Assembly (NCBI RefSeq): GCF_000685295.1 | Contig: NZ_ARYL01000017.1 | Coordinates: forward strand, 1-64,000 | DNA length: 64,000 nt | From: Hyphomonas oceanitis SCH89 | Lineage (GTDB): Bacteria; Pseudomonadota; Alphaproteobacteria; Caulobacterales; Hyphomonadaceae | Direction of reading: 5' to 3' | Shown: positions 1 through 18,187 of the stretch, piece after piece | Layout: every line of letters begins with the position of its first letter | Position numbering within the stretch: the first letter of the stretch is position 1 | Translations under genes and position numbers: made by a program | Notes under the pieces: generated by a model | Databases searched by the model: none | What the model saw: the letters and a program-made list of their open reading frames with translations, nothing else | What the model was told of the DNA's origin: nothing

Positions 1-70
1 GATCAACCCTGATCGTTGCACTCAATGCGCTGCGGCTTCTTGCATTCAAAGAGCGAAAGGAAGCAGAGGC

Positions 71-370
71 ATGATCAGAGTTCGCAGGAAACTGTTTCAC
101 GCGTCGGCGTCACAATGGCGAACGACGCTGCTTTTGCTCGCGACATGGGTCGGCCTTGGTGCCGGGATCAGTGGGTGTGCCACAATTGCAGGCAGCACCA
201 AGCCTCTGACAGATTTTGAGCGAGCGGCTATACGCACCGAATGTGGAAATTATCCGGTATCGCGAATTCGCGCTGGCGGCGCTGGCAGGAAGTATCGCTA
301 CCTTGCCTGCAAACAGACCGTTCTGGACCGCGAGAGCGGCCAAACAGCCGTCTCATCAGGTGTCGACTAA
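71..370 (+). CDS. small predicted lipoprotein, unknown function
   Basis: The 99-residue product starts with a basic stretch (residues 3-17), then a hydrophobic segment (about 19-34) ending in ISGC, which fits a lipobox with Cys36 as the lipidated residue. The mature part is only about 63 residues and carries no domain I recognise. The ATG has a purine-rich stretch (GGAAGCAGAGG) just upstream. The gene lies on the island side of the dusA junction at about 714, in DNA that is less GC-rich than the rest, so it may be cargo of an integrated element. The function is unknown, and it could also be a spurious reading frame. Confidence 0.5.
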   Translation: MIRVRRKLFHASASQWRTTLLLLATWVGLGAGISGCATIAGSTKPLTDFERAAIRTECGNYPVSRIRAGGAGRKYRYLACKQTVLDRESGQTAVSSGVD

Positions 371-713
371 GCCGATCTGTGGACGTCGGCCAGCCTTACG
401 CAAGCTACTTGCTGCGTCAGCCAAGAACGGCGATCAATTTCCCGACTTTTCACACCACATCGTAACACGTCCGCCTGACTTGGCTGGAACCAACGCTGTT
501 CTCAATTGACATACCGCAAAGCGATCTGGGTATCCGAAGCCCCTACGCAACCGATGCCCAAACTAGACGAATGGACGATCCCAATTCGGTTTGGATAGCA
601 GAGCAGAACCAACAACCCGATTGCCGAAATGAACGAACAACACGCGCTTGAGGCTGCACACGTAGCGCACACGCAAGCTTGTAATATATTGTTTTACCTA
701 TGTTTTTTATGCC
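371..713. other. non-coding stretch at the edge of a putative island
   Basis: I see no convincing gene in this stretch. It becomes AT-rich towards 680-710, with short T-runs, immediately before the dusA fragment. The reading frame that crosses it on the minus strand continues the dusA fragment but no longer resembles DusA. The most likely content is the terminal part of an integrated element, including an attachment-site arm. Confidence 0.4.
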
Positions 714-752
714 ATCCATCATGGGGGCCACGGAGAAGCGGTAGTCGGTCAT
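714..752 (-). pseudogene. dusA: 5' fragment of dusA (tRNA-dihydrouridine synthase A), probable att junction
   Basis: Reading the minus strand from the ATG at 752 gives MTDYRFSVAPMMD, which matches the conserved N-terminus of DusA (Y/H-R-F-S-V-A-P-M-M-D-W-T-D). Immediately after the second Met-Asp, where WTDRHCR is expected, the sequence changes to unrelated AT-rich DNA. That frame runs to a stop near 543 with no DusA features. DusA catalyses dihydrouridine formation in the tRNA D-loop and is normally about 330 residues. The 5' end of dusA is a documented integration site for a family of tyrosine recombinases of prophages and islands. The remnant is divergent from slyX. I infer that it is the host-side arm left by such an insertion. 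Confidence 0.6.
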
Positions 753-848
753 GCGGCCCCGTTTAGTGCGGGGGATGGGGGCGCGTCCAGCGTCTTTGCC
801 GTGATCAATGTATTTGCAGGCAGGGCGCCCGGCAGCTATGAGCAGGGG

Positions 849-1058
849 ATGACAGATACAGCCCGCATCGACACGCTTGAAATCCGCGTCGCCCATCAGG
901 ATGAGGTGATCGACGATCTGAACAAGACGGTGATTGCGCAGTGGAAAGAGATCGACCGGCTGACGCGGCAAATGGCGCGGCTGACCGAGCAGTTCGCCAA
1001 CATGGGACAGGCCGAGCGGCCCACGCAGGGCGACGAGCCGCCCCCGCCGCACTGGTGA
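849..1058 (+). CDS. slyX: SlyX family protein
   Basis: This 69-residue protein is almost entirely one coiled coil (residues 5-50, heptads of Ile/Leu such as IDTLEIRVAHQDEVIDDLNK). It ends in the proline-rich PPPPHW tail typical of SlyX (usual length about 70). A GTG at 801 is in frame, but the ATG at 849 follows GCAGGGG and gives the family length, so I chose it. SlyX was named from phiX174 lysis genetics in E. coli, where it lies by slyD; its molecular role is unknown. Here it sits four bases before the VOC gene, probably co-transcribed. Confidence 0.85.
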   Translation: MTDTARIDTLEIRVAHQDEVIDDLNKTVIAQWKEIDRLTRQMARLTEQFANMGQAERPTQGDEPPPPHW

Positions 1059-1062
1059 CGCG

Positions 1063-1590
1063 ATGAGCCGCATTTTCGGGAAAGTCTGCCAGAACGGCTA
1101 TGTCGTGCGCGATATCGAAGCGGCGATGAAACACTGGATCGAGGTGATGGGCGTTGGCCCCTGGTTCTATATTGAAGACGTGAAGACCGACTGGTTCACC
1201 TATCGCGGCGTGGCCTCCGACGTGAAGATGAGCATTGCGCTCGCCAATTCCGGCGACCTGCAGATCGAACTGATCCAGCAGCGCAATGACGCGCCGTCGA
1301 TGTACAAGGACTTTCTCGATGCGGGCCGTGAGGGGCTGCAGCACATGTCCTACTGGACCGAGGATTATCAGGGCCTCTACGACAAGGCCCTTGGGCTTGG
1401 TTACACAGTGGGCCATGAGGGGCAGATCGGCGGCGAGAAGGGCCGGTTTGCCTATTTCGATACCGAGGCCCATCCCGGCACCGTGGTCGAGATTTCCGAT
1501 ATCAGCGGCGCCAAGGGCAAGACCTTTGCCTATATCCGCAAGCAGGCCGAAGGCTGGGACGGGACGAACCCGATCCGCACGTTCAGCTGA
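1063..1590 (+). CDS. VOC (glyoxalase/bleomycin-resistance fold) family protein
   Basis: The 175-residue product has a single vicinal-oxygen-chelate unit. The N-terminal module opens with FGKVCQNGYVVRDIEAAMKHW, and the C-terminal module includes RFAYFDTEAHPGTVVEI, whose terminal Glu is a typical metal ligand. This arrangement is like glyoxalase_4 proteins and methylmalonyl-CoA-epimerase-like enzymes. The substrate cannot be read from the sequence. It directly follows slyX and overlaps the convergent kinase gene by 8 bases. It could act on an acyl-CoA or lactone intermediate of the nearby catabolic block, but that is inference only. Confidence 0.85.
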   Translation: MSRIFGKVCQNGYVVRDIEAAMKHWIEVMGVGPWFYIEDVKTDWFTYRGVASDVKMSIALANSGDLQIELIQQRNDAPSMYKDFLDAGREGLQHMSYWTEDYQGLYDKALGLGYTVGHEGQIGGEKGRFAYFDTEAHPGTVVEISDISGAKGKTFAYIRKQAEGWDGTNPIRTFS

Positions 1591-2323
1591 TCCGATCTTC
1601 CGCAATTTCGACTGTGTGATCGCGCGCCTTGTGCACGACGATATCGGCGTGGGCTTTCAGCGGATGGATATGGTCGCGCAGGTTCGGCAGGTTGACGCCG
1701 TCCCAGACGGTCTTTGCGAAGGCGCGCAGCTCTGTTTCGCTCATGTGGAGCCATTGGGCGTAGAAGGAGCTTGGGTCGGTTCGCGCCGCGTTCCAGAAGC
1801 CGACGAAGCGTTCGACATACCAGAATTCAAGATCGGCCTCGGAGGCGTCCAGATAGACCAGCACGTCCGGCTCGCCGTCCGGGCGCTCGGGACGGGTTGG
1901 CGGCTGGAAGCCGAGGCCTTCCAGGATGAGCATGTCCGGCAACTGCACAGTGCGCGTCAGGGCGGGGTCGATGTCATAGATGTCGTGGCTGTGGGCCGGG
2001 AACGCGGCCGCCCCTTGCCTTATGCTGACGAGCGCATTGGTAAAGCCATCGCGGTCAAAGGTTTCCGGGAAGCCCTTGCGCATGAGCAGGCCCTGCGGTT
2101 CCAGCACGGCGTTCGGGAAGAGGAAGCCGTCGGTCGAGACGGTCTCGACGCTGAGCGGCGGGTTGAGCGCGTCAGCCACGTCGCGGGCGAGCGTGGTCTT
2201 GCCGGCGGCGACCGAGCCGGTGAGGCCGACGATGCGGGCGGCAGCACTGGACTGTAGCTCGGCGAGGCGTTCGGCCAGCGCGGCAATGCCGGCGCCTTGA
2301 TGGATGATCACGTCGCGGTCCAT
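1583..2323 (-). CDS. type I pantothenate-kinase-like P-loop kinase
   Basis: The protein (246 residues) has a Walker A GSVAAGKTT (about 36-44), then STDGFLFPN and LLMRKGFPETFD. These match the type I PanK signatures TDGFLYPN and RKGFPESYD. The C-terminus NLPNLRDHIHPLKAHADIVVHK parallels the NLxxNIxPTRxRA end of E. coli CoaA. PanK phosphorylates pantothenate, the first step of CoA synthesis. At 246 residues it lacks about 70 N-terminal residues of CoaA (about 316), so it may be a compact variant or a relative with another substrate (PRK/uridine-kinase superfamily). It is convergent with the VOC gene. Confidence 0.75.
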   Translation of the reverse strand: MDRDVIIHQGAGIAALAERLAELQSSAAARIVGLTGSVAAGKTTLARDVADALNPPLSVETVSTDGFLFPNAVLEPQGLLMRKGFPETFDRDGFTNALVSIRQGAAAFPAHSHDIYDIDPALTRTVQLPDMLILEGLGFQPPTRPERPDGEPDVLVYLDASEADLEFWYVERFVGFWNAARTDPSSFYAQWLHMSETELRAFAKTVWDGVNLPNLRDHIHPLKAHADIVVHKARDHTVEIAEDRIS

Positions 2324-2468
2324 GCAGTCAGTTCCCTAGCTTGCGCGCACAGCTTAGCGGTGGAGCGCCAAGGAACCAACGGGAAAACGGCCCGGACGGA
2401 CCCGCTTGGTGGCGCCCCCTCCCCCTGTTAGATTGAAGAGGTACCGGACGGGGGAAGGACAGCCTACG

Positions 2469-3389
2469 ATGCTGGGCATGAAAACATATCTCGGATGGAA
2501 AGTGGATTTCCTGCAGCCTACAGGCGAGCCCGCCTATGCGGGGCCGGACTCCGTATCATGGCGCGTGTTCAAAAACCCGATTGCGCTGGGCGTGGGCGGC
2601 ATTGCCGCCGTGCTGCTGGAATTTGCCGATGCGCGCATACGGTCCGGCGTGTGGGACCATTCCACGTTCAAGACGGACCCGGTCGGGCGATCCAAGCGCA
2701 CCGGCATGGCCGCCATGGTGGGCGTTTACGGACCGCAGAGCGCGGCGCGCCGGGTTATCCAGGGTGTCACGAACATGCACACTCAGGTGAAAGGCGAAAC
2801 ACCGTCTGGCGAAGCCTATTCAGCGCTGGATGTGGAGCTGCTCGACTGGGTGAGCGCGACGGCGACCTATGGCTTCCTGACCGCCTATGACCGGTTTGTG
2901 GCGCCGCTGTCGGATGCCGACAAGACGCGCTTCTATGAAGAGGGCGAGGCGGTGGCGCGGCTCTATGGCGTGCAGAATCCGCTGCGCAGCGAGGCAGACT
3001 TTCATGCGATGCTGGCAAAACTGATGCCGCGCTTCGAGCCGCACCCGATCAATACCGAATTCCTCGATATCATGAAGTCCGGCCGCGCCGCCAAAGGCGT
3101 GCCAAAAGGCCTGCAAAGCGCGGTCGTGAATGCGGCGGTGTCGATCCTGCCTGTGGACGTGCGCGACCGGCTGGAGCTTGGGGCGGACTATGACCTGCGG
3201 CCCAAGGGAGTCGCGACGGTGAAGGCCATGGGTGCCCTTGCGGAACGTCTGCCTTTGCCTGCAAGTCCCGCGGGTCAAGCTTGCGTCAGGCTGGGTCTTC
3301 CTGCCACATTTCTATGGAAGAGCCCTGAGAAACAGGCAAGTATACGCCACACAATACAAGAGGGACGGGCGGCTTCACTGGCGCACTGA
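2469..3389 (+). CDS. MpaB/Lcp-type (DUF2236) oxygenase family protein
   Basis: This 306-residue protein has the pattern of the DUF2236 family. A segment with ARRVIQGVTNMHTQVKGETPSG holds the conserved His (MHTQVKG) expected to bind haem. It is followed by LDVELLDWVSATATYGFLTAYDRF, an acidic helix-rich core and a proline-containing C-terminus. Family members include latex-clearing protein Lcp and MpaB, haem-dependent oxygenases that cleave C=C or polyisoprenoid bonds. The ATG at 2469 follows GGAAGGAC. It is the first gene of a run of plus-strand catabolic genes up to 7.3 kb; the substrate is unknown. Confidence 0.8.
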   Translation: MLGMKTYLGWKVDFLQPTGEPAYAGPDSVSWRVFKNPIALGVGGIAAVLLEFADARIRSGVWDHSTFKTDPVGRSKRTGMAAMVGVYGPQSAARRVIQGVTNMHTQVKGETPSGEAYSALDVELLDWVSATATYGFLTAYDRFVAPLSDADKTRFYEEGEAVARLYGVQNPLRSEADFHAMLAKLMPRFEPHPINTEFLDIMKSGRAAKGVPKGLQSAVVNAAVSILPVDVRDRLELGADYDLRPKGVATVKAMGALAERLPLPASPAGQACVRLGLPATFLWKSPEKQASIRHTIQEGRAASLAH

Positions 3390-3408
3390 TCCCCGGAGGA
3401 GCGGCAAA

Positions 3409-4614
3409 GTGAATCTGGAATTTCTTCCCGAAGAAGAGGCCTTTCGTGACGAGGTGCGCGCGTTCCTCGACCGCGAACTGACGGCAGACCTGCGCGCCTA
3501 TGCAGCGCGGATGACGAGCGTCTATTCTGACAAGGAAACGGCCCTCGCCTGGCAGGCCATTCTTGTCAAACAGGGCTGGGCCGCGCCCGGCTGGCCCGTT
3601 GAATATGGCGGCTGCGACTGGACCGTGGCGCAGAAATATATCTTCGACGTGGAGATGGCCCGCGCGGGCGCCCCGCCCCTCTCGCCGATGGGCATTGCCA
3701 TGTGCGGCCCGGCTTTGATCGGCCATGGCACGAAGGAACAGAAAGACCATTACCTGCCGCGTATCCTCTCCGGCGAGGATTTCTGGTGCCAGGGCTATTC
3801 CGAGCCGCATGCAGGGTCTGACCTCGCCTCGCTGACCATGTCGGCCAAGGATGATGGCGACGCCTTCATCTGCAATGGCTCGAAGATCTGGACGACGCAT
3901 GCCCATGAAGCCAACATGTGTTTCTGCCTGGTGCGCACAGATGCCAGCGGCAAGCCGCAACAGGGCATCACCTTCCTGCTGATCGACATGACGACGCCAG
4001 GCGTGCGCGTCGACCCAATCATCATGACATCCGGCGAGCATATCCAGAACGCGATCTTCTTCGATGATGTGCGCGTGCCGAAGGCCAATGTGATCGGCAA
4101 GGTCAACGAGGGCTGGACGGTCGCGAAATACCTGCTCGAGTTCGAGCGCGGCGGATCAAGCTACGGCCCCCGCCTGAAGGCACGGGTTGCGTCGCTGCGC
4201 ATGCATGCGGTGGAGGCCGGCACGGGGCCGGACATGTTGGCGAAGCTCTCTCAGGCGGAAGCGGATGCCTCGGCGCTCGAAGCGGCCGAGCTGATGATGA
4301 TGTCGGAACTGTCGGGCGGCGGCACACCGGGCCTCAAGGCCTCGATGATGAAGATCAAAGGCACGGAACTCAGCCAGCGCCTGACGGAGCTTGCGCTCGA
4401 GATTGCCGGCAACTGGGTCGAACCCTTCCAGCCTCACCACACCAATCCCGGCGGCGAAGTGGTCAACGCACCATCGAACTCGGGCGCGCTTGTCGGGCCT
4501 GAAAGCGCCGTGACCGTGTCTGCCAAATACCTGAACGACCGGGCAGGTTCGATCTATGCCGGCTCGAACGAAATCCAGCGCAACATCCTTGCCAAGGCCC
4601 AGCTCGGGCTTTGA
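3409..4614 (+). CDS. acyl-CoA dehydrogenase
   Basis: The 401-residue flavoenzyme starts with a GTG preceded by GGAGGAGCGGCAAA, which fixes the start; a longer upstream extension in the same frame is not protein-like. It has the ACAD order: an N-terminal helical domain, the FAD/substrate signature WCQGYSEPHAGSDLASL (about 125-142), a beta domain with TTPGVRVDPI, and the C-terminal helical bundle ending in YAGSNEIQRNILAKAQLGL. It oxidises an acyl-CoA at the alpha-beta position. It is a clear paralogue of the dehydrogenase at 10.1-11.3 kb (for example QGWAAPxWPVEYGG and ARAGAPxLSPMG are shared). It is followed by GST, nitronate monooxygenase and enoyl-CoA hydratase genes, probably one operon. 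Confidence 0.92.
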   Translation: MNLEFLPEEEAFRDEVRAFLDRELTADLRAYAARMTSVYSDKETALAWQAILVKQGWAAPGWPVEYGGCDWTVAQKYIFDVEMARAGAPPLSPMGIAMCGPALIGHGTKEQKDHYLPRILSGEDFWCQGYSEPHAGSDLASLTMSAKDDGDAFICNGSKIWTTHAHEANMCFCLVRTDASGKPQQGITFLLIDMTTPGVRVDPIIMTSGEHIQNAIFFDDVRVPKANVIGKVNEGWTVAKYLLEFERGGSSYGPRLKARVASLRMHAVEAGTGPDMLAKLSQAEADASALEAAELMMMSELSGGGTPGLKASMMKIKGTELSQRLTELALEIAGNWVEPFQPHHTNPGGEVVNAPSNSGALVGPESAVTVSAKYLNDRAGSIYAGSNEIQRNILAKAQLGL

Positions 4615-4638
4615 TCACCTAACGGAGCACTAAACCGT

Positions 4639-6451
<1,813 letters not shown>

Positions 6452-6469
6452 ACCTCAGGAGGATATGTG

Positions 6470-7333
6470 ATGGCCTACGAGCAGATCCTTTTGGAAAAGG
6501 ATGGCCCGGCGGCCATCATAACCCTTAACCGTCCGGAAAAGCTGAACGCGTTCACCGCGCAACTTGGCCAGGAGCTGGCCGATGCGGTATATGCGTGCGA
6601 CGCTGACGATGAGGTGCGCGGCATCATCCTGACGGGTGCGGGCCGCCACTTCTGTGCGGGCGCCGACATTTCCGATGGTGCCGATGCGTTCGATACGAAG
6701 AGCGGCACGGGCGCGAAGAATTTCGGCGCGTCAGAGCCCGGCAAGAAGCGCGACGGGGCTGGTTTCATCGGCGCGCTCTATAATTGCCGCAAGCCCGTGA
6801 TTGCCGCTTTCAATGGCGCGGCTGTCGGCGTTGGCCTGACGCTGGCCTTGCCGACCGATATCAAGATCGCCTCGGAGAAAGCCAAGTTCGGCTTCGTGTT
6901 TGCGCAGCGCGGCCTGCCGCCGGAAGCGGGCAGCGCGTGGTTCCTGCCCCAGCTGGTCGGTCTGCCGCAGGCGCTGCGCTGGTGCATGACGGGCCGCGTG
7001 TTCGATGCGGAGGAAGCGCTGGCCGGCGGCCTGATCAGCGAGATCCATCCGCCGGAGGAGCTGTTGCCGGCTGCCAAGCGCATTGTGGACGAGATTGCCC
7101 GCAACACAGCGCCGGTCTCTGTCGCGCTGGTGCGCCAGCTGCTCTGGCGCTTCGGGCCGACAGGTGATCCGTTCGAATTGCTGAAAGTGGACGGACAATT
7201 TGCGCTGACGCTCGGCTCATCGCCCGATGTGAAAGAGGGCGTCGGATCGTTCCTCGAAAAACGCGCGCCTAATTTTCCCGGAAAGATCTCCACCGACATG
7301 CCGGAAGGCTATCCCTGGTGGGAGCGTACCTGA
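6470..7333 (+). CDS. enoyl-CoA hydratase/isomerase family protein (crotonase fold)
   Basis: The protein has 287 residues. A GTG one codon upstream is in frame, but the ATG at 6470 lies 6 bases after AGGAGG, so I chose it. Crotonase signatures are visible: IITLNRPEKLNAFT, the oxyanion-hole HFCAGADISDG (about 62-72), and AFNGAAVGVGLTLALPTDIKIAS. One catalytic Glu sits near LPPEAGSAWFLPQLVG. The C-terminus (EGVGSFLEKRAPNFPGKI) is typical. It probably hydrates the enoyl-CoA made by the neighbouring dehydrogenases. It is the last gene of the plus-strand run and faces the TonB receptor gene. Confidence 0.9.
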   Translation: MAYEQILLEKDGPAAIITLNRPEKLNAFTAQLGQELADAVYACDADDEVRGIILTGAGRHFCAGADISDGADAFDTKSGTGAKNFGASEPGKKRDGAGFIGALYNCRKPVIAAFNGAAVGVGLTLALPTDIKIASEKAKFGFVFAQRGLPPEAGSAWFLPQLVGLPQALRWCMTGRVFDAEEALAGGLISEIHPPEELLPAAKRIVDEIARNTAPVSVALVRQLLWRFGPTGDPFELLKVDGQFALTLGSSPDVKEGVGSFLEKRAPNFPGKISTDMPEGYPWWERT

Positions 7334-7348
7334 CGCCTCCCCTGCCCT

Positions 7349-7383
7349 AAAAAAACGGCCGCGATCCAGAAGGATCGCGGCCG
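7349..7383 (-). terminator. intrinsic terminator of the TonB-dependent receptor gene
   Basis: A perfect 12-bp stem (CGGCCGCGATCC with its complement, 7356-7383) closes on a 4-base loop. On the minus strand it is followed by seven T residues (7349-7355). It lies 33 bases after the receptor stop codon and may also stop the convergent enoyl-CoA hydratase transcript. Confidence 0.85.
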
Positions 7384-7415
7384 CGGTGCCCGAGGGGAGG
7401 AAACACTTTTCGGTT

Positions 7416-9959
7416 CTAGAACCGGTACGTGAGGGAGGCACCATAAGTCCGTGGCATGCCTGCAAAGCGCATGACGACGTTCGCGTTTGTCGTGATCTGC
7501 TGCCAGTAATACTCGTCGGTCAGGTTCTTGCCCCAGACCGAAACTTCCCAGTTCTGGTCGATGGAATAGACGCCGATCGACCCGTTGAGCAGACCATAGG
7601 AGTCGATGTCGTAGAGCGGGTCATTTGGCTGACCAGCTGTCGACTCGCTCTGCCAGCGACCACTGAGCGATGCACGCAGGCCCAGGTCCGTCGTGACCGG
7701 ACGATCATAGAGCAGCGCGAGGCTGACAACGGATTCAGGACTGTAGAGGAAGGGATCGCCCTGACGGTTTGTCGGCAGGCCGAAGCTGTCGACCGTGTCG
7801 AAGTCGCCGATCTCGGTGTGCAGAAGCGTGAGGCCACCCATCGCCGTCAGCTCTTCACTGATCAGGTAGGTGACTTCTGCATCGAGACCGTAGGCTTCAG
7901 CGGTTGGCACGTTCTGAAGACGGGCGAGCGCCTTGTAGATCGGGTCGGCGAAGAAGGCCGAGATCTGCTTGTCTTCATAGTCGTAATAGAAGAGCGCCGC
8001 GTTGGCCTGCATGCGCTGGTCGAGCAAGCTGGCCTTGAAGCCGACTTCATAGGCGAGCAGGCCTTCCTGCGTTGCAGGGGCGTTCTGTTCGGACTTGGAC
8101 GCCGCGTTCACAGGCGTGGAGGCCGACTTGTAGCCCTGCGTTGCCGAAGCAAAGAGCACGAGGTTGTCAGTCGGTGTCCAATTGCCAACGATGCGCCAGG
8201 AGACGTTGTCTTCCTTGGTTGAAGACGCGACCGGGCCGAAGGAGTTGGTTGCGACGTCAAACGTGTTGCAGCCGTTTTCGAGCAGTGGCGCGGCTGGAGC
8301 CGTCCCGTAGATCAGCGCGAAATAGGTGCGATTGAAGACGTTGACGTTCGGCTGCATCGAGCCGTTCACGTCGCCCGAGCAGCCGACATAGTCCTGCGTG
8401 TCTTCAGTGTAGCGGATGCCTGTCGTGAGCGTGAATTCAGGCGTCAGCTCCCAGTCGGCGTTAGCAAAGATGCTCCAGGTTTTCGTCTCGAATTCGCCAG
8501 TGTCCCGATAGGTCTGGAACGAGTTCAGAAGCTCGGCCACCGTGTAGGGCACGCCGGTTTCCGGATCCACGTTCAGGGGCGAGGCCGCAAGCGTGGCAGC
8601 GATGGTTGCGACATAGCTGGAGTTAGCATTGTCGAGCAGGAGCGTGCGGTTCGTATCCGAGGTTTCGTCCTTGCCGTAATAGGCGCCGACGAGCCAGTTG
8701 GCCTTGCCGGTCTCGCCTTCCAGACGCAGTTCCTGGCTGAAGGATTTGATCTCGGCATCGACATCCTGGAGCAGGACCGCGAAGGGCGCGGATGAGAAGT
8801 CCAGCACGGCCTCGCGGTCCAGCTTGTTGTAGCCGGTCAGCGAAACAAGGTTGAGGCCATTGTCGAAGCCATAGCGGACACCGAGCTTAAGGGCGTCAAA
8901 CTTGGAGTCCTCTTCCAGTGGACCATCAATGCCGTTAACACCGATGCCGTCCGTTGTGCGAGCGTAATTTGGTGCCCAGTCGGTCTGTTCCGCATTGGTC
9001 GGGAAGTTATTATTGACGAAGTCAACGAGGCTGAGCCCGGTGACCGGATCAACCGCATTGAAGAGCGAGGTGGTGGACGGGCCGCCGGTGCCGGGAACCA
9101 CGAAAGTCGGATCGGTGTTCGGTGTCAGCGCGATGGCCTGACCACCGATCGTGTCGGACTTGTTGCGCCAGCCATTATAGGAAACGTCGATGTCGAGGCT
9201 GTCGGTTGGCTGCAGGGCCAGCGCGGCGCGGAAGCCGAGCTTGTCTTTCGTGCCGCGATCTTCACCGCGCGTGATCGACTTTTGCCAGCCTTCGTCGCTG
9301 TTTTCGCTTCGGATGGCGAAGCGGGCCTGCGCGCGCTCGGACAGCGGCACGTTGAGCATGCCTTCTATGTTCCAGGTGTCATAGTTGCCGACATCGGCAC
9401 TGACAGACCCTTCGAACTGGTCGGAGGGCTTGTTGGTGACCATATTGATCAGGCCGGCCGTCGTGTTGCGGCCAAACAGGGTGCCTTGCGGTCCTTTCAG
9501 CACTTCGACGCGCTGAATGTCGAACACAGGGCCCGAGTTCATGAACGGATAGGGATAGGCCACTTCGTCAACATAAGTACCGACCGTGGAGGTGGCCGAG
9601 ACGTTGATCGTGTTGAAGCCGATGCCGCGCAGCGTGTAGGTCGGCACGCCCTGATAGCTCTGCGAGACAGAGAAGCTCGGCACGACATTCTGGAGGTCGT
9701 CGACACTGTCGACGCGCAGGGCATCCAGCGTGTCTTCGCCGAAGGCCTGAATACTCATCGGCACGTCATTGATGGATTCTTCGCGGCGCTGCGCGGTCAC
9801 GACGATCGAGCCAAGCTTCAGCGAGCTGTCAGCGGGCGTCTCGGCAGGTGCCGCCGGTGCAGCGTCGGTTTCCTGCGCCATGGCTGGCATCTGCGAGGCC
9901 AGCGCGAAAAGCGAGGCGCCCAACATGGCATAACGGCGGATTCGGGGTGTCTGGGTCAT
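7416..9959 (-). CDS. TonB-dependent outer-membrane receptor
   Basis: The 847-residue protein has a signal peptide (about 1-28, ending MPAMAQ), a short acidic/Ala-Pro spacer and a TonB box SIVVTAQRR (about 51-59). The plug domain (about 60-175) includes DVPMSIQAF, TYTLRGIGFNT and GRNTTAGLINMVTNKP. A 22-strand barrel follows, ending in the aromatic F of SLTYRF. Such receptors import siderophores, but in sphingomonads and hyphomonads often carbohydrates, steroids or aromatics. It lies downstream of an acyl-CoA dehydrogenase on the same strand and beside a lipid-type catabolic run, so a hydrophobic substrate is a reasonable inference. A potential hairpin covers the Shine-Dalgarno region (9972-9998). 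Confidence 0.95.
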   Translation of the reverse strand: MTQTPRIRRYAMLGASLFALASQMPAMAQETDAAPAAPAETPADSSLKLGSIVVTAQRREESINDVPMSIQAFGEDTLDALRVDSVDDLQNVVPSFSVSQSYQGVPTYTLRGIGFNTINVSATSTVGTYVDEVAYPYPFMNSGPVFDIQRVEVLKGPQGTLFGRNTTAGLINMVTNKPSDQFEGSVSADVGNYDTWNIEGMLNVPLSERAQARFAIRSENSDEGWQKSITRGEDRGTKDKLGFRAALALQPTDSLDIDVSYNGWRNKSDTIGGQAIALTPNTDPTFVVPGTGGPSTTSLFNAVDPVTGLSLVDFVNNNFPTNAEQTDWAPNYARTTDGIGVNGIDGPLEEDSKFDALKLGVRYGFDNGLNLVSLTGYNKLDREAVLDFSSAPFAVLLQDVDAEIKSFSQELRLEGETGKANWLVGAYYGKDETSDTNRTLLLDNANSSYVATIAATLAASPLNVDPETGVPYTVAELLNSFQTYRDTGEFETKTWSIFANADWELTPEFTLTTGIRYTEDTQDYVGCSGDVNGSMQPNVNVFNRTYFALIYGTAPAAPLLENGCNTFDVATNSFGPVASSTKEDNVSWRIVGNWTPTDNLVLFASATQGYKSASTPVNAASKSEQNAPATQEGLLAYEVGFKASLLDQRMQANAALFYYDYEDKQISAFFADPIYKALARLQNVPTAEAYGLDAEVTYLISEELTAMGGLTLLHTEIGDFDTVDSFGLPTNRQGDPFLYSPESVVSLALLYDRPVTTDLGLRASLSGRWQSESTAGQPNDPLYDIDSYGLLNGSIGVYSIDQNWEVSVWGKNLTDEYYWQQITTNANVVMRFAGMPRTYGASLTYRF

Positions 9960-10067
9960 CTGATTTATCTCCTCCCGGCAGCCTCCTCTTGGCGGGAGCT
10001 GTCCATTGAGCGGGACAGTCAGTAATTATTGGACAATCAACAAGCTATCGGAAGTGACAGGGTCGGC

Positions 10068-11255
10068 TCACAGCCCCAGCACCATCTTGGCCATGATGTT
10101 GCGCTGGACCTCGTTCGAGCCGCCATAGATGGAGGCCGCCCGATTGTTGAGGTAACGTGGCACAAGCGTCACGCGGTCAGACGGACCGACAGCGTCAATA
10201 TTGCTGCCCGGCTGGCGCGCATCCAACTGCTCGACACATGCATAGGTGCCGCCCGCCTCGACCCCAAGCGTGTCGATCCGCTGCATCATCTCGGTGCGCT
10301 GGACCTTGAGCATGGAGGCCGCAGGGCCGGGGTTTCCGCCGCTGGACAGCGCGGAAGAGACACGCTGCTCGGTGATCTTGATGGCTTCGAGGCCAATCTC
10401 GGCTGCTGCCAAACGGCTGGTAAAGCCCGGATCGGATGCCAGCAGGCCATCGCGCTGAGCAAGCGCGCGAATGCGGCCGACACTGGCTTCGAGGCCAGCG
10501 GACGAGCCGCCGCCCCGCTCGAACTCGAGCAGGTATTTGGCGACGGTCCAGCCATCATTTTCGGCGCCGAGGCGCCCGGCCTTGGGCACGCGTACATCAT
10601 CAAAGAAAACCTGATTGACCTCATGCTCACCCGCCAGCGTGATGATCGGATCGACTTTGATGCCCGGCAGGGTCATGTCGAGCAGGAGGAAAGTGATGCC
10701 TTCCTGCGGCTTGCCATCGAACCGCGTGCGCACGAGGCAGAACATCATGTTCGCGTGGTGGGCGTGCGTGGTCCAGATTTTGGTGCCGTTGAGGATATAG
10801 TCGTCGCCGTCGGACGTCGCCTTCAGGCTGAGGCTGGCGAGATCGGAGCCTGAACCCGGCTCGGAATAGCCCTGGCACCAATAGTCCTCACCAGCGAGTA
10901 TGCGCGGTAGGTAATAGGCCTTCTGCTCGGGCGTGCCGTGCCCGATGATGCAGGGGCCGACCATGGCGAGCCCCATGGGCGAAAGGGACGGCGCCCCTGC
11001 CCGCGCGCACTCAGAGGCAAAGATATAGCGCTGCATCTCGGTCCAGCCCGTGCCACCATACTCCACGGGCCAGGCGGGCGCGGCCCAGCCCTGGGCATGC
11101 AGGATTTTTTGCCAGGGCAGGCTGAACTGCGGCTCGATGAACACACTCGTGACCAATCGCCCGGCATCTGCCAGTTCTTCGGTCAGGTTGTCGCGAAGGA
11201 ACGCTCGCACTTGCGAACGAAATTCACTATCCTCAGTTGTGAGATCGAGGTTCAT
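10068..11255 (-). CDS. acyl-CoA dehydrogenase (paralogue of the one at 3.4 kb)
   Basis: This 395-residue enzyme starts at the ATG preceded by GGAGGCCCAAA. An in-frame start 7 codons upstream has no such site. The FAD motif YWCQGYSEPGSGSDLASLSL (about 122-141) and the C-terminal YGGSNEVQRNIMAKMVLGL are intact. Many blocks are shared with the dehydrogenase at 3409-4614, indicating an old duplication or two subunits of a heteromeric enzyme, as known for alpha2beta2 steroid-type ACADs; the second reading is inference. It is divergent from the LuxR-type gene with only 74 bases between, and upstream of the TonB receptor on the same strand. Confidence 0.92.
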   Translation of the reverse strand: MNLDLTTEDSEFRSQVRAFLRDNLTEELADAGRLVTSVFIEPQFSLPWQKILHAQGWAAPAWPVEYGGTGWTEMQRYIFASECARAGAPSLSPMGLAMVGPCIIGHGTPEQKAYYLPRILAGEDYWCQGYSEPGSGSDLASLSLKATSDGDDYILNGTKIWTTHAHHANMMFCLVRTRFDGKPQEGITFLLLDMTLPGIKVDPIITLAGEHEVNQVFFDDVRVPKAGRLGAENDGWTVAKYLLEFERGGGSSAGLEASVGRIRALAQRDGLLASDPGFTSRLAAAEIGLEAIKITEQRVSSALSSGGNPGPAASMLKVQRTEMMQRIDTLGVEAGGTYACVEQLDARQPGSNIDAVGPSDRVTLVPRYLNNRAASIYGGSNEVQRNIMAKMVLGL

Positions 11256-11329
11256 TTTGGGCCTCCGGGTTTGCACGACTCCGATGCCGCGTCCGCTTAT
11301 CAGGTAAGCTGACAGTATACGGCCTGATC

Positions 11330-12130
11330 ATGCAACCTGCTCTATTTGATAGGGTTTATTTATTGACGGATTTTGCCGACACGCAGGATGCTCCCGGAGA
11401 CGCTGGCGCCCAAGCCATGCGCCTCGCCCGCGAGGTTGCTGCGCTGGGCGAGGACATTGGCCTGCCCTACATTGCCGTCAGTGCCGATATTGGCAGCCCG
11501 GAACCCATGTGCGACCCGACCGGCCGTCCGCTCGCCGAAACGCTGTTTCGCTGGATAGACCCCGAACTGGCCTATTGGAAAGACCGCGCCTTTGCGCTGA
11601 GGTCTGGCTATGTGCGCGGGGCACGGACCTGCGCCGAGCCGTTCTTCCATGCCGACAAGCAAATTGGCAGCTGGCGCCATATTGCGGCCCTGGACGGCCT
11701 GGCCAAGACGATGCGGGCCGAGGACTATAGTGTCGGGGCCGCAATCATTTCACCCTGCCATCTTCCGTCTGGCGTGATTGGCGCCATCGTGTGGGCAACA
11801 CCCGAGAAGGGTTTCCCAATCCGGAACGTGTTCGACGCTCGGGCCGCCGAGATCCACGTCCTGACTTTGAAGTTCATTGCCACCTATCACGAGTTCAGGG
11901 GCGCCGGGCCGACTGACCTCGCCGTCGCCCTCACGCGCCGCGAAATCCAGTGCCTGAAATGGGCCGCCGCCGGCAAGACCGACCATGAGATCGCGACCAT
12001 TATCGGCATTTCCCAACCGACGGTGCGGTTCCACATTACCAATTCGAGCCGGAAGCTCGGCGTCTCCGGCCGGTCGCAGGCCGTCCATCGCGCGACGACG
12101 CTTGGTTATATCGGCGGCAGTGCGAGCTGA
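11330..12130 (+). CDS. LuxR-family transcriptional regulator, solo
   Basis: The 266-residue protein has an N-terminal region (about 1-190) resembling the autoinducer-binding fold, with RWIDPELAYWKDRAF and a following Trp-rich part (GSWRHIAALDGL). A C-terminal GerE/LuxR helix-turn-helix (about 200-260) reads LTRREIQCLKWAAAGKTDHE followed by IGISQPTVRFHI. No luxI-type synthase gene is in the window, so it would be a solo that could sense another small molecule. It is divergent from the acyl-CoA dehydrogenase across 74 bases, where it most likely acts. The start codon has no clear Shine-Dalgarno sequence. Confidence 0.8.
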   Translation: MQPALFDRVYLLTDFADTQDAPGDAGAQAMRLAREVAALGEDIGLPYIAVSADIGSPEPMCDPTGRPLAETLFRWIDPELAYWKDRAFALRSGYVRGARTCAEPFFHADKQIGSWRHIAALDGLAKTMRAEDYSVGAAIISPCHLPSGVIGAIVWATPEKGFPIRNVFDARAAEIHVLTLKFIATYHEFRGAGPTDLAVALTRREIQCLKWAAAGKTDHEIATIIGISQPTVRFHITNSSRKLGVSGRSQAVHRATTLGYIGGSAS

Positions 12131-12210
12131 AACACAATTTGCGGAGCGGGGTTTCCCGACCGGAATTGCGGCCTATCATCGCCCATGAACCCGACAAGAG
12201 GAAACGCGCC

Positions 12211-13101
12211 ATGACCCGACTGCCACACAACCAGCCTGTGCCCCAGGGCGTGCTCGACCTTTATGATGGCTATTGCCATGGCGCGATGTCGCGGCGGGAC
12301 TTCTTCGACAGGCTCGGCAAGTATGCCGTTGGCGGGCTCAGCGTGTCGATGCTGGCCGCCTGCGTCATGCCGGATTACGAGGGCACTTTGCAGACGTCGG
12401 CGGATGACGCGCGCCTGAGCGTCGAGACCTTCCAGTATAATTCACCCAATGGCGCAGGCGACATGGCGGGCGATCTGGTGCGCCTCAAGAAGGGGCCTGC
12501 CAAGCGGCCCGGCGTGATTGTCGTTCATGAGAACCGGGGCCTCAATCCCTATATCAAGGATGTCGCCCGGCGTACGGCGCTTGAGGGCTATATCGCTCTT
12601 GCCCCGGACGCGCTCTACCCGCTCGGTGGCTATCCCGGAAACGATGACGATGGCCGCGAGATGCAGGCGACACGCGACCGCGACGCGATGATCCAGGATT
12701 TCATGGCTGCCGCCGAGGCCTTGCGCGACCATCCAGAATGCAATGGCAAGGTCGCCTGTGTCGGCTTCTGCTTTGGCGGCAGCGTGACCAACATGATGGC
12801 GGTGAACCAGCCCTGGCTGTCAGCTTCAGCTCCCTTCTATGGCGGCTGGCCGACCGAGGAAGAGGCCGCAAAGGTCGAGGTGCCGCTGATGATCCATCTC
12901 GCCGGCCTCGACGAGCGCGTGAATGCCGGCTGGCCGGAATATGAAGCCGCGCTCAAAGCCAATGACGCCGAGTACCAGGTCTTCATCTATGACGGCGTGA
13001 ACCACGGATTCCACAATGACACGACGCCCCGCTATGACGCGGACGCGGCAACGCTCGCCTGGTCACGGACGATGAATTTCTTCAAGGCGAAGCTGGCTTA
13101 G
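12211..13101 (+). CDS. dienelactone hydrolase family protein, Tat/lipoprotein signal
   Basis: The protein has 296 residues. The N-terminal part carries SRRDFFDRLGKYAVGG (twin Arg at about 28-29) followed by a hydrophobic stretch and LAAC, so it looks like a Tat-exported, possibly lipidated enzyme. The alpha/beta-hydrolase core has the DLH triad: nucleophile Cys in GFCFGGS, Asp in LAGLDERVN and His in GVNHGFHN. It cleaves a lactone or ester; the substrate is unknown. The arrangement resembles YghX-type exported DLH proteins. The ATG at 12211 is preceded by AAGAGGAAACGCGCC. It follows the LuxR gene by 80 bases and could be its target. Confidence 0.85.
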   Translation: MTRLPHNQPVPQGVLDLYDGYCHGAMSRRDFFDRLGKYAVGGLSVSMLAACVMPDYEGTLQTSADDARLSVETFQYNSPNGAGDMAGDLVRLKKGPAKRPGVIVVHENRGLNPYIKDVARRTALEGYIALAPDALYPLGGYPGNDDDGREMQATRDRDAMIQDFMAAAEALRDHPECNGKVACVGFCFGGSVTNMMAVNQPWLSASAPFYGGWPTEEEAAKVEVPLMIHLAGLDERVNAGWPEYEAALKANDAEYQVFIYDGVNHGFHNDTTPRYDADAATLAWSRTMNFFKAKLA

Positions 13102-13109
13102 TTCGACCG

Positions 13110-13883
13110 TTACATGACCCGGCTGATGGTGTTTCCATCTGATGGCCACTCAGCCGTCGGCAAGACACCAAGACCGGGCCGCGCAAACAAAAAGCCCTGC
13201 ATGAGATTGACGCCGAGATCGCGCAGCATCTCGTACTCGCCGACGGTTTCGATGCCTTCGCAGATGGGAATTATGCCGAGATCATCGAGCATATTGAGCG
13301 TATTGCGCACGATGACCTGTTTCACGCGATTCTTATCGACGTCGCGGATAAGCTCCATGTCCAGCTTAACGAAATCCGGCTGAAAGTCGGCCAGAAGGCC
13401 AAGCCCGGCATAACCTGCCCCAAAGTCATCAATCGCCGTCTTGAGGCCCAGGGACCGGTAGGTGCGCAGGATGTTGAGAATATGCGCTGAATCGAGACGC
13501 TCCACCTCGGTGAACTCAAACATGATCTGCTGAACCGGAAAGCCTGTCCGCATCGCAGCGGCCAGCGTCATGCGAATACAGGCGCGTGGCTCATAGACGG
13601 CGTTGGGCAGGAAATTGATCGACAGGAGCGTGCCGGACTTTGCAAGGTCCAGTCCGGCTGCCATCTCGATCGCCGTCGTACGGCATTGCTGGTCAAATGC
13701 GTACCTGTTGGAATCCGATACGTGGGCCAGAACCTCCCCGGCGCCCATGCCATCAACACCGCGCACCAGAGCTTCGTATGCGAACGTGCTGCGCGCATTG
13801 GTATCGGCAATCGGCTGGAACGCCATCGTGATCGGCAGGTCAAAGCCGGCGCCATCGTGGCAGCCATTGCATGCGGTCGTCAT
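13110..13883 (-). CDS. EAL-domain cyclic-di-GMP phosphodiesterase
   Basis: The product (257 residues) is a stand-alone EAL domain. The key residues all seem present: YEALVRG (the EAL Glu), INFLPN (Asn), EFTEVE (Glu), DDFGAGYAGL, FVKLDMELI (Lys), CEGIETVGE (Glu) and QGFLFARP (Gln). It should therefore be able to hydrolyse c-di-GMP. The N-terminus has CNGCH, a compact Cys/His group that could bind metal; that is unproven. No sensory or membrane domain is attached. It is convergent with the DLH gene, with 8 bases between stops. Confidence 0.9.
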   Translation of the reverse strand: MTTACNGCHDGAGFDLPITMAFQPIADTNARSTFAYEALVRGVDGMGAGEVLAHVSDSNRYAFDQQCRTTAIEMAAGLDLAKSGTLLSINFLPNAVYEPRACIRMTLAAAMRTGFPVQQIMFEFTEVERLDSAHILNILRTYRSLGLKTAIDDFGAGYAGLGLLADFQPDFVKLDMELIRDVDKNRVKQVIVRNTLNMLDDLGIIPICEGIETVGEYEMLRDLGVNLMQGFLFARPGLGVLPTAEWPSDGNTISRVM

Positions 13884-14013
13884 TGTAACTTCCCCCGTAG
13901 ATCAGAGCAGGAGAGTTTCGCATGATTAAAATGAAGAAAATGTGTGTGGCTGCAACGCTTCTACAGGCCAACGTGCATCAGGTAACATCCGGAACGCGCG
14001 CACCGGCTTGGAA

Positions 14014-14088
<75 letters not shown>

Positions 14089-14133
14089 GATCCATTCGGG
14101 AAGCAGGGGTAATGGATAATTCGGGGCGTGCCG

Positions 14134-14454
14134 TCAAGACGCGTTTGACGGTGTCACTATGTGAAGGGCGATTTTCTGCAGTATCGCTTCAGGTGTTTCC
14201 GGGTCGTCGGCATAGAACCAGACCTCCCGGAGGGGGTCGCTGGCCGTGAAACTGTAGCCATCCAGCTGGAAAACCAGCCATTGGCCTATCTCGGCCGGCA
14301 CCAGCGAGGCGATGTCGATACCGTCCATCGCAATCAGCCGGATGACACAGTCATCCATACTCATTTGTGCCGGCGCATCAAAGAAATGACGCCCCGTATC
14401 GGTCACAGTGGATTTGATCAGCTTCGGCGGCTCGTCGGACGAACCGCCGGCCAT
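14134..14454 (-). CDS. unknown protein translationally coupled to cpdR
   Basis: This 106-residue, acidic, soluble protein has no signal peptide or membrane segment. I do not recognise the family. The middle (CVIRLIAMDGIDIASLVPAEIGQ) and end (DPETPEAILQKIALHIV) look like an alternating beta/alpha fold. Its start codon overlaps the cpdR stop as TGATG, so it is almost certainly translated with CpdR at a coupled ratio. A role as an accessory of the CpdR/ClpXP pathway is a reasonable hypothesis from position only. Confidence 0.75.
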   Translation of the reverse strand: MAGGSSDEPPKLIKSTVTDTGRHFFDAPAQMSMDDCVIRLIAMDGIDIASLVPAEIGQWLVFQLDGYSFTASDPLREVWFYADDPETPEAILQKIALHIVTPSNAS

Positions 14455-14813
14455 CAGGCAGCCATCACCTTGTCAACTTCGTCGACAATCTCACGCAGGT
14501 GGAACGGCTTGGAGAGGACTTTCGCCCCGGCCGGCGTCGGCGCGCTGGAAGACAGCGCCACAGCGGCAAAACCCGTAATGAAAACAATCTTCATGGCCGG
14601 GTCGAGCTCTGCGCCGCGACGGGCAAGCTCGATGCCGTCCAAGCCGGGCATGACGATATCGGTCAGCAAGAGGTCAAACACTTCGCGCTCGAGCGCGTGC
14701 AGGGCTGTTTCGCCGTCCGCATAGTCCTGGATCTCATGGCCAGCCCGGCGCAGGGCTGCAGCCAGGAATGTGCGCATTGAGTCGTCGTCTTCTGCGAGAA
14801 GGATCTTGGTCAC
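14454..14813 (-). CDS. cpdR: single-domain response regulator CpdR
   Basis: The 119-residue receiver-only protein has the acidic triad EDDD (8-11), phosphoacceptor Asp52 in LLLTDIVMPGLDGIELA, Thr in FITGFAAVAL and Lys in VLSKPFHLREIV. These segments match Caulobacter CpdR closely. In Caulobacter, unphosphorylated CpdR brings ClpXP to the pole and primes it for substrates such as PdeA; CckA-ChpT controls its phosphorylation. The C-terminus ends in two Ala, as is common for ClpXP-linked proteins. The N-formylglutamate amidohydrolase gene is divergent upstream, a common alphaproteobacterial neighbour. Confidence 0.92.
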   Translation of the reverse strand: MTKILLAEDDDSMRTFLAAALRRAGHEIQDYADGETALHALEREVFDLLLTDIVMPGLDGIELARRGAELDPAMKIVFITGFAAVALSSSAPTPAGAKVLSKPFHLREIVDEVDKVMAA

Positions 14814-14963
14814 GCTCGCCCCCTTGGATGCCAGTAATTGATTTAAGACATAAACAGCCTATCCGGTAAATCAGCGGTGAAGACGGGTGAAATTTCAGAG
14901 TTCTTTTTTACCAGACCCCTGAAAAGGCTTGACCTTCATGCGAACAGGCAAACCATTGGCCCC

Positions 14964-15866
14964 ATGACCGGCGCCCTCCCCCTGACACGATCGGCCACTT
15001 CGCCCCCTGCCGGGCCGTTCGGCTATGACACGCCCTATACGCTGGACGTGCCCGAAGGCCCCCCGGCGCCGGTGCTGTTTGCGTCACCCCATTCGGGCCG
15101 CGACTATCCCGAGAGCATGCAGGCGGCCCTACGCGTGCCCCTGATTGATGTGCGCCGCACCGAAGATGCGTTCGTGGAAGAATTGTTCGGCGAAGCCCCC
15201 ACGCTTGGCGCAACGCTGATGGCCGCGCGCTATGGCCGGTCGGTAGCCGATCTCAACCGCGACCCGCGCGAGCTGGATGCCAGCATGTTCAGCGACGGCC
15301 TGCCGCGTGCGTCCGGCCTGCCGACGGCGCGGGTGGATGCGGGACTCGGGTGCCTGCCCCGTGTCGGCGCCCGGGGCGAGGCCATTTATGCCCGACGCCT
15401 GACCCGTGAGGAGGGCGAGGAGCGCCTCAGCTGCGTGCATGATGCCTATCATGACCGGCTTGGCCAGGAGCTGGCCCTGCTGCGCGAGGCGCATGGCGCC
15501 GTTCTGCTGATCGATTGCCATTCCATGCCATCGGTCCAGCCGGGCCGCAGGCAACTGGCCGATATCGTGCTGGGTGACCGGTTCGGATCGAGCTGCGATC
15601 CGCGCCTGACAGGACGGGTTGAGCGGGCCTTCCGCACGCATGGCCTGAGCGTGGCCCGCAATGCGCCCTATGCCGGGGGATATACGACGCGACGCTATGG
15701 CCGACCTAAACGCCAAGTGCATGCCTTGCAGATTGAGATAAATCGCGGGCTCTACATGGATGAGCACACGATCAGCCGCCTTGAGCGATTTGCTGAAATA
15801 AGAGCCATCATTACAGATGTGACAGCGGAGATCCTTGAGATCGCCGCGCTTGTCGTCCGTCCCTGA
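14964..15866 (+). CDS. N-formylglutamate amidohydrolase
   Basis: The protein has 300 residues; the ATG at 14964 is chosen because upstream codons in frame do not resemble the family. FGase motifs are visible: VLFASPHSGRDYP (His/Ser of the metal site), YGRSVADLNRDPRELD, LLIDCHSMPS (Asp/His metal ligands) and HALQIEINRGLYMDE. The enzyme releases formate from N-formyl-L-glutamate in histidine degradation (HutG type). In alphaproteobacteria such genes often sit by cpdR without other hut genes, as here, so the physiological substrate may differ. Confidence 0.88.
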   Translation: MTGALPLTRSATSPPAGPFGYDTPYTLDVPEGPPAPVLFASPHSGRDYPESMQAALRVPLIDVRRTEDAFVEELFGEAPTLGATLMAARYGRSVADLNRDPRELDASMFSDGLPRASGLPTARVDAGLGCLPRVGARGEAIYARRLTREEGEERLSCVHDAYHDRLGQELALLREAHGAVLLIDCHSMPSVQPGRRQLADIVLGDRFGSSCDPRLTGRVERAFRTHGLSVARNAPYAGGYTTRRYGRPKRQVHALQIEINRGLYMDEHTISRLERFAEIRAIITDVTAEILEIAALVVRP

Positions 15867-15875
15867 CATTCCGAC

Positions 15876-15906
15876 AAAAAAAAGGGCCGCACCCGTGGGT
15901 GCGGCC
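15876..15906 (-). terminator. intrinsic terminator of the candidate small RNA
   Basis: A perfect GGCCGCACC stem with a 4-base loop (15885-15906) is followed on the minus strand by C and eight T residues (15876-15883). No annotated minus-strand protein gene lies upstream for more than 2.5 kb, so it should terminate an unannotated transcript. Confidence 0.85.
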
Positions 15907-16000
15907 AAAGTCAAAGGGAGGAAACGCCAGAGGCGTCTGCACCGAAGTGCAAGGACAGGAATATGTTGCGGTGCACAAATAGGCAAGCGCAGGAATGTCG
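15876..16000 (-). ncRNA. candidate structured small RNA with CCUCCC motif
   Basis: Read on the minus strand, this 265-base gap holds a UUCG-capped hairpin (15938-15951), a second hairpin ACGCC-UCU-GGCGU (15924-15936), and an unpaired stretch with GUUUCCUCCC (15916-15925). A strong terminator follows (15876-15906). A 7-base segment at 15969-15975 can compete with the UUCG hairpin for pairing. No protein-like frame explains these structures. The unpaired CCUCCC is complementary to Shine-Dalgarno sequences, as in several alphaproteobacterial regulatory RNAs. The 5' end and promoter are not determined; 16000 is only an estimate. Confidence 0.55.
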
Positions 16001-16131
16001 CACCTGTGCAATTAACCTCAACTGCCCGTTTATTGGGCACAATAATGCTCTGCGGCACACCTATTGCGTAGGACTTGCTCGAAATTCCTGTTTTGGGACT
16101 GAAACGGTCCTGCATAAGTTTGGAGCAAGTA

Positions 16132-16530: not shown

Positions 16531-16542
16531 CGCCGGGCGCAA

Positions 16543-16560
16543 GGCAGGGCTAGCCCTGCC
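16543..16560. repeat. perfect 18-bp palindrome over the hisN ribosome-binding region
   Basis: GGCAGGGCTAGCCCTGCC is self-complementary (7-bp stem, CTAG loop in RNA). It ends two bases before the hisN ATG, where the Shine-Dalgarno sequence should be. It could sequester initiation or serve as a protein operator. Confidence 0.7.
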
Positions 16561-16562
16561 GG

Positions 16563-17432: not shown

Positions 17433-17463
17433 GGCCGACACAATCGGCAGGCACTTTCAAAGC

Positions 17464-18144: not shown

Positions 18145-18159
18145 CCCGTTCGCGCAAAC

Positions 18160-18187
18160 AAAAAGCCGGCCCCAGAAGGACCGGCCC
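18160..18187 (-). terminator. intrinsic terminator of the PRC-barrel gene
   Basis: On the minus strand a GC-rich stem (GCCGGUCC with GGGGCCGGC, UUCU loop) is followed by five T residues. It lies about 20 bases after the PRC-barrel stop and faces the convergent HAD gene. Confidence 0.8.

What the first reader, a model, noticed from the sequence alone, without database searches (positions are those of the whole stretch)
1..752. Window begins inside an element integrated at the 5' end of dusA
A minus-strand ATG at 752 opens MTDYRFSVAPMMD, the conserved start of DusA, then switches to unrelated AT-rich DNA exactly where WTDRHCR is expected. The 5' end of dusA is a known target of prophage/island tyrosine recombinases. 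The junction at about 700-714, the lower GC on the left and the small orphan lipoprotein all fit an element lying to the left of the window.
Basis: partly seen in the sequence, partly recalled or inferred. Interest (0 to 1): 0.72.

Follow-up and report, generated by a model that had tools for sequence, protein, structure and literature searches.

The report
dusA-inserted mobile element, far end
The window starts inside the far end of a mobile DNA element that inserted into the start of the tRNA-modifying gene dusA and gave that gene a replacement start; this is a well-supported example of a known kind of insertion.

Summary
Window 715-752 (minus strand) is the original first 13 codons of dusA, cut off at an insertion junction. 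The same genome has one full-length DusA gene, on contig C1. Its first codons are different (MNKNQVHR in place of MTDYR), and a divergent tyrosine integrase sits beside it. In relative G004 the two flanks (C1 up to 300,810 and C17 from 712) lie side by side, overlapping by 12 bp. A 19-bp repeat occurs without mismatch at two places in the 4.28-Mb assembly: beside the integrase and at window 655-673. That ties the window's left end to that integrase. The C1 part, cut by the contig end, carries a relaxase, a coupling protein and a QueC/PfkB-deoxyribosyltransferase cassette. The window part carries the tail of a metal-transport ATPase gene and a small lipoprotein. The stretch between could not be found, because window position 1 is also the start of the contig. 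Insertion in dusA with a replaced 5' end is published (Farrugia 2015; Durand 2021), so this is a new member of a known kind. The paired end repeats at fixed spacing look like integrase arm sites; I met no report of them.

The parts
1..74 (+). 3' end of a heavy-metal P-type ATPase gene (STLIVALNALRLLAFKERKEAEA*), cut by the contig start
   Evidence: Window 1-439 matches G053:C14 at 92%, where the homologous stretch is the end of a 672-aa ORF; window 1-86 also matches G004:C63 at 90%. The ATPase name is my reading of the translated sequence; it was not run against a family library.
71..370 (+). Small lipoprotein-like ORF (99 aa), start overlapping the ATPase stop (ATGA, 71-74)
   Evidence: ORF; a homologue sits in the same place in G053:C14; no match at E 0.001 in Pfam, PADLOC, NCBIfam or PHROGs.
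655..673 (-). Probable integrase arm-type site, CGTGTGCGCTACGTGTGCA
   Evidence: One of only two mismatch-free places in the assembly; the other is C1:300940-300958, just before the ATG-started integrase frame. 41 bp from the core, as in 5 of 6 distal ends examined.
715..722 (-). Crossover core (ATGATGGA on the dusA strand), exact in both ends; part of a 21-bp imperfect repeat 715-735
715..752 (-). Original 5' end of dusA (MTDYRFSVAPMMD), left at the distal end of the element
   Evidence: same peptide as intact dusA of G004, in a 94% DNA match over window 715-1600.
543..752 (-). Accidental fusion ORF: dusA start running into element DNA
   Evidence: part of the 543-1073 ORF, taken from the ATG at 752. 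Function was not examined.
753..20000 (.). Host chromosome flank (upstream of dusA, SlyX-like ORF 801-1058, and onward)
   Evidence: C17 712-13091 and 13998-20000 align with G004 at 92% and 89%, collinear with the dusA side on C1. Beyond 20000 the window was not compared. The ORF 801-1058 matches SlyX-type NCBIfam models below their cut-offs; the name SlyX is recalled.

Best explanation
The left 714 bases of the window are the integrase-distal end of an integrative element. Its tyrosine integrase, encoded at the opposite end on contig C1, recombined the element's attachment site with the conserved ATGATGGA stretch at codons 11-13 of dusA. The body of dusA was thereby joined to a substitute start carried by the element (MNKNQVHRFSVAPMMD...), and presumably to an element promoter, so DusA stays intact. 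The 19-bp repeats 128-129 bp (integrase side) and 41 bp (distal side) from the core are most likely arm sites that the integrase binds. Shown: both junctions, the integrase and its conserved catalytic residues, the restored dusA frame, the empty site in a relative, the shared repeat. Inferred: that this integrase catalysed the recombination, that the repeats are arm sites, that DusA is expressed from the new start, that the C1 end and C17 start are two ends of one element.
For: dusA on C1 is full length and scores over two DusA models (486 and 422 bits), with a replaced N-terminus and a divergent integrase next to it (PF00589 E 9.6e-27). Empty site: the C1 flank ends at G004 345933 and the C17 flank begins at G004 345922. 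The 19-bp repeat has only two mismatch-free places in the assembly. Among 42 genomes of the genus, the FSVAPMMD coding pattern occurs twice in 5 of 8 genomes with a close integrase and in 0 of 34 others (Fisher p 6.6e-5). Of 69 related integrase loci in named genomes, 59 have dusA divergent and adjacent. R209, H300, R303, H326 and Y335 are present in 58 of 58 aligned integrases (own plus 57 of the 58 loci given).
Against: The contig break prevents reading one continuous element. 3 of the 8 integrase-bearing genomes (G007, G017, G020) show no second pattern copy, and G017 shows none at all. The G042 distal end has no well-matching repeat at the expected spacing (best 7 mismatches, elsewhere) and G015's has 5 mismatches. 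No usable promoter was found for the new dusA start: the one site listed (9 of 12) has its second hexamer inside the first codons. None was listed before the native start either.
Confidence: 0.96

Rival explanations
1. Two or more elements sit in tandem in dusA: the C1 end belongs to one and the window end to another.
For: The one-contig genome G019 has two stubs and one restored dusA, and in G015 the stub itself looks element-derived (KMPTKQNYR, compare KMPKKQNYR supplied by the G051 element), so arrays probably occur in this genus. Of the 10 relatives (of 69) without an adjacent full dusA, three have an integrase beside only a short FSVAPMM stub that meets a stop within 20 codons (L128, L152, L157).
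Against: In the window's own assembly only two core copies encode the peptide; the two other matches at up to 3 mismatches, on C41 and C63, each have 3 and do not encode it. Only two mismatch-free arm repeats occur. A missing stretch could still hide one.
Confidence: 0.15
2. The window start is an assembly chimera at a contig end.
For: The junction is only 714 bases from a contig end in a 188-contig assembly.
Against: The breakpoint falls on the attachment core; the foreign side has the matching arm repeat and 439 bases that occur in another genome at 92%; a full dusA with replaced start exists elsewhere.
Confidence: 0.02
3. dusA was broken by a deletion, a transposon or an inversion rather than by site-specific insertion.
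For: A truncated 5' stub alone would look the same.
Against: The rest of dusA is intact on C1 with an in-frame substitute start, and the flanks meet in G004 at this point. All 9 integrase-side ends examined have an in-frame substitute start.
Confidence: 0.01

Closest known systems
dusA-associated integrases and dusA-specific genomic islands (Farrugia et al. 2015, PMC4482086)
   Same: Tyrosine integrase at the 5' end of dusA; 21-bp semi-conserved repeats; element-supplied new dusA 5' end; native 5' end left at the other end. The integrase matches those of phages that the paper lists as carriers (AH2, BcepIL02, H66).
   Different: The words Hyphomonas and 'arm' do not occur in that main text; paired end repeats are described here. 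Conjugative-transfer genes are mentioned there for other islands.
IMEVchUSA3 and other dusA-specific elements of Vibrio (Durand et al. 2021, PMC8409611)
   Same: New promoter and N-terminus supplied to dusA, tested there by lacZ fusion; a tandem pair in dusA is reported there.
   Different: Those are mobilised by IncC plasmids and use RdfN for excision; neither was looked for here. The cargo named in the passages seen differs.
QueC 'cluster 4' with PfkB-deoxyribosyltransferase neighbour (PMC13329287)
   Same: The element's QueC-like protein has SGGMDS and CHVAEFACGFCRGCRK, matching that cluster's loop and cysteine signature, and a PfkB/NDT fusion neighbour.
   Different: Its YGQ motif has 5, not 6, residues before E. 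The small glycine-rich protein and a nitroreductase-like protein are not mentioned in the section read ('nitroreductase' 0 times in the main text).

Membership tests
dusA-associated integrase (DAI) islands | Tyrosine recombinase with RHRH/Y | tested here: met
   R209, H300, R303, H326, Y335, each in 58 of 58 aligned integrases; PF00589. That these are the catalytic residues is read from the motif pattern.
dusA-associated integrase (DAI) islands | Integrase gene next to the 5' end of dusA | tested here: met
   C1, divergent; 59 of 69 relatives alike.
dusA-associated integrase (DAI) islands | About 21-bp semi-conserved direct repeats in dusA at both ends | tested here: met
   16 of 21 identical, 8 exact. 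The 21-bp frame was chosen by me to start at the exact part; it was not aligned to the paper's logo.
dusA-associated integrase (DAI) islands | Element supplies new dusA 5' end; native end at far side | tested here: met
dusA-associated integrase (DAI) islands | Integrase groups with DAIs/Rci in a tree | tested here: inconclusive
   37-38% identity over 96-97% to integrases of phages AH2, BcepIL02 and H66, which the paper names as carriers; no tree was built.
dusA-associated integrase (DAI) islands | Excises as a circle and restores native dusA | not testable with these tools
   Needs PCR or reads.
Integrative conjugative or mobilisable element | Relaxase and coupling protein on the element | tested here: met
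   DUF3363 E 9.6e-97 with Relaxase E 8.6e-6 (26.5 bits, cut-off 24.6), and T4SS-DNA_transf E 2.8e-101, on the C1 part.
Integrative conjugative or mobilisable element | Own mating-pair system (TrbE) on the element | tested here: inconclusive
   8 TrbE-type matches in the genome; none lies in the 11.3 kb of C1 that can be assigned; the middle of the element is unassigned.

The most novel reading that the evidence does not exclude
The element's cargo is an undescribed anti-phage cassette in which a QueC-like enzyme attaches a nucleobase to the N-terminus of the small glycine-rich partner protein (MSGGGGSG...), by analogy with the deazaguanylation reported for type IV CBASS. Separately, the paired 19-bp repeats at fixed distances from the core are the arm sites of the dusA-integrase family.
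Probability: 0.15. Interest if true: 0.6.

Novelty: new member of a known kind. Interest (0 to 1): 0.3.

Why it matters
It gives a worked case of an element that inserts into a housekeeping gene yet hands back an intact copy, with both ends, the empty site and closed relatives available. The end repeat, found close before the integrase start in 50 of 69 related loci, gives a concrete DNA target for testing how this integrase family recognises its element. The cargo cassette, whose core also occurs on plasmids of distant bacteria, is a lead for a defence function.

Tried and rejected
Joining the C1 end to the C17 start: a search with window 1-800 found no other place in the genome. A search with the homologous full-length ATPase found three places at 30-41% identity, so the neighbouring contig was not found. 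The C1 end matches C79 and C90 at 93-94% and C21 and C5 at 74-75%, so related mobile DNA in this genome may have broken the assembly; I fetched C79 and C90 but did not analyse them.

A perfect long core repeat: not present (8 bp exact). An RNA feature in window 1-3000: no Rfam match at gathering threshold. PADLOC recognises only the QueC-like protein among the 9 proteins given. Paper searches: QueC with nucleoside 2-deoxyribosyltransferase, nitroreductase and defense gave one listing that by its title is unrelated; dusA with tyrosine recombinase and arm-type gave 0; dusA, integrative element, attP, repeat and excisionase gave 2 (Durand 2021 and a prophage-finding tool that I did not open); Hyphomonas, genomic island and dusA gave 0.

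Rejected: chimera and simple deletion, for the reasons under rivals. Corrected on checking: an earlier wording placed the listed promoter site over the new dusA start codon; it lies inside the first codons, so it does not support a promoter.

Full report
What the window shows. The window begins at base 1 of contig C17 of a 188-contig assembly. On the minus strand an ATG at 752 opens MTDYRFSVAPMMD and then leaves dusA at 715. In a search of 41 genomes with window 640-1600 (at most 11 candidates scored per genome), 20 matches in other genomes are listed; the 7 that reach the dusA stub all begin at window 715. Two of these, G004 and G011, continue at 94% and 84% through window 1600 and have an intact dusA. 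GC is 0.539 left of the junction and 0.609 right of it.

The other end. The genome has two Dus-family matches. One, on C18, scores best as DusB, below that model's cut-off; only the matched 295 residues were tested. The other, on C1, is a full DusA of 333 aa (486 bits against a cut-off of 269), and it starts MNKNQVHRFSVAPMMDWTDAHCR rather than MTDYRFSVAPMMD. Beside it, reading away, is a tyrosine integrase (PF00589, E 9.6e-27), likely starting at L004:4962. Of the 69 related loci I gave 58 to an alignment; 57 passed a length filter, and with the own integrase R209, H300, R303, H326 and Y335 are present in 58 of 58.

Same insertion. In G004 the C1 side aligns up to 345933 and the C17 side from 345922, in the same order and with some unaligned gaps over about 19 kb on each side. 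So the two contig ends flank one insertion point inside dusA. The repeat CGTGTGCGCTMCGTGTGCA was searched in the whole assembly with up to 3 mismatches. The only two matches without a mismatch are C1:300940-300958, just before the integrase ATG, and C17:655-673 in the window. Two further places have 3 mismatches, one of them also beside the integrase (C1:300883-300901). The reversed control pattern gave one match on each strand at up to 3 mismatches; their mismatch numbers are not listed. Between the two ends the best 19-base window matches at 18 of 19; in 294 random segment pairs from the flanks the best was 17 (once), so 0 of 294 reached it.

Architecture. In six distal ends from five genomes (G019 has two), the repeat lies 41 bp from the core in 5: with 0-1 mismatch in 4 and with 5 mismatches in G015; in G042 the best match has 7 mismatches at another distance. 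On the integrase side the repeat lies 128-129 bp from the core in 9 of 9, with 0-3 mismatches. In the 69 related loci from named genomes, 59 have dusA divergent next to the integrase, 50 have the repeat (loosely defined, up to 2 substitutions of a degenerate pattern) close before the integrase start, and 44 have both. Three have only a short FSVAPMM stub that meets a stop within 20 codons (L128, L152, L157). L138 and L145 are unexplained. I read the repeats as arm-type sites; this is inference. A full-text search for dusA with 'tyrosine recombinase' and 'arm-type' gave 0 papers, and 'arm' does not occur in the main text of either dusA-island paper.

The dusA repair. All 9 integrase-side ends examined (G042 and G007 are identical in this stretch) carry an in-frame ATG and encode RFSVAP with differing synonymous codons; one, G017, reads RFNVAP. 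This fits selection to keep DusA working; no formal test was run. The promoter scan listed one site for the new start, with its second hexamer inside the first codons, and none before the native start. That a promoter comes with the element is therefore inference from Durand 2021.

Genus survey. Among 42 genomes of the genus, 11 have an integrase match at E 1e-30 or better. Eight of these are close (74% or more, the own genome included; for G042 and G007 the tool counts one TAA, whose place I did not check), one is a fragment with a stop (G051) and two are distant, 33-34% (G002, G021). The FSVAPMMD coding pattern occurs in 35 of 42 genomes and twice in only 5, all among the 8. The table 5 of 8 against 0 of 34, in which G051, G002 and G021 count among the 34, gives Fisher p 6.6e-5. 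The 7 genomes with no exact copy include G017, whose substitute start has a changed codon. G019, a one-contig genome, has two stubs, so tandem insertion probably occurs. The genus is inferred to be Hyphomonas: contigs of the same-genus genomes G042 and G017 have the same lengths as H. polymorpha PS728 contig 13 and a contig of Hyphomonas sp. RI_45.

Content. The C1 part (11.3 kb, ending at the contig end) encodes a T4SS coupling protein, an OGG-type glycosylase, a nitroreductase/SagB-like protein (weak matches), a QueC-like protein, a PfkB plus nucleoside 2-deoxyribosyltransferase fusion, a 116-aa glycine-rich protein without a family match, a DUF3363 relaxase and an S26 peptidase. Eight TrbE-type matches lie elsewhere in the genome and cannot be assigned. 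The window part holds the end of an ATPase gene and a lipoprotein-like ORF, 92% identical to G053:C14 over 439 bases. The order small protein - PfkB fusion - QueC-like gene recurs in 3 of 3 plasmid regions inspected, picked by me from the best rows of 50 plasmid records with a QueC-like match. The four small proteins share an invariant M-S start and a glycine-rich early region of varying length. The QueC-like protein fits cluster 4 of PMC13329287 apart from one spacing (section 8 read). A defence role is inference; PADLOC names only the QueC-like protein.

Literature. Farrugia 2015 (PMC4482086; results parts 1 and 2, section 18 and a term search read) describes this kind of island, its 21-bp repeats and the replaced dusA 5' end. 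Durand 2021 (PMC8409611; section 13 and passages read) shows that a dusA island supplies a promoter and N-terminus and reports a tandem pair. PMC13329287: section 8 and one term search. For PMC11996544 only the listing and start of the abstract were seen. Hence: a new member of a known kind.

Noticed in passing
L004:8731-12318 (C1 part of the same element): Cassette of OGG-type glycosylase, nitroreductase/SagB-like protein, QueC-like protein, PfkB-deoxyribosyltransferase fusion and a 116-aa glycine-rich protein; the last three recur on plasmids of Rhizobium, Methylocystis and Moraxella, in the last followed by a gene annotated anti-phage deoxyguanosine triphosphatase. Possibly anti-phage.
   Followed up: partly
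L087:3980 and L087:16643 (G019); L086:831 (G015): Stubs that suggest tandem insertion of elements in dusA; among the ORFs of 100 aa or more that one search printed for L087:3900-16700 I recognise no integrase by eye.
   Followed up: partly
G000 contigs C26, C35, C51, C31, C66, C1, C33, C2: Eight TrbE/VirB4-type matches in one genome, suggesting several conjugative systems.
   Followed up: no
L147 and L148 near 9852, L149 near 6607: A second copy of the end repeat in opposite orientation between dusA and the integrase in three relatives.
   Followed up: no
L004:15246-15575: Small helix-turn-helix-like ORF that could be an excisionase; name from inspection only.
   Followed up: no
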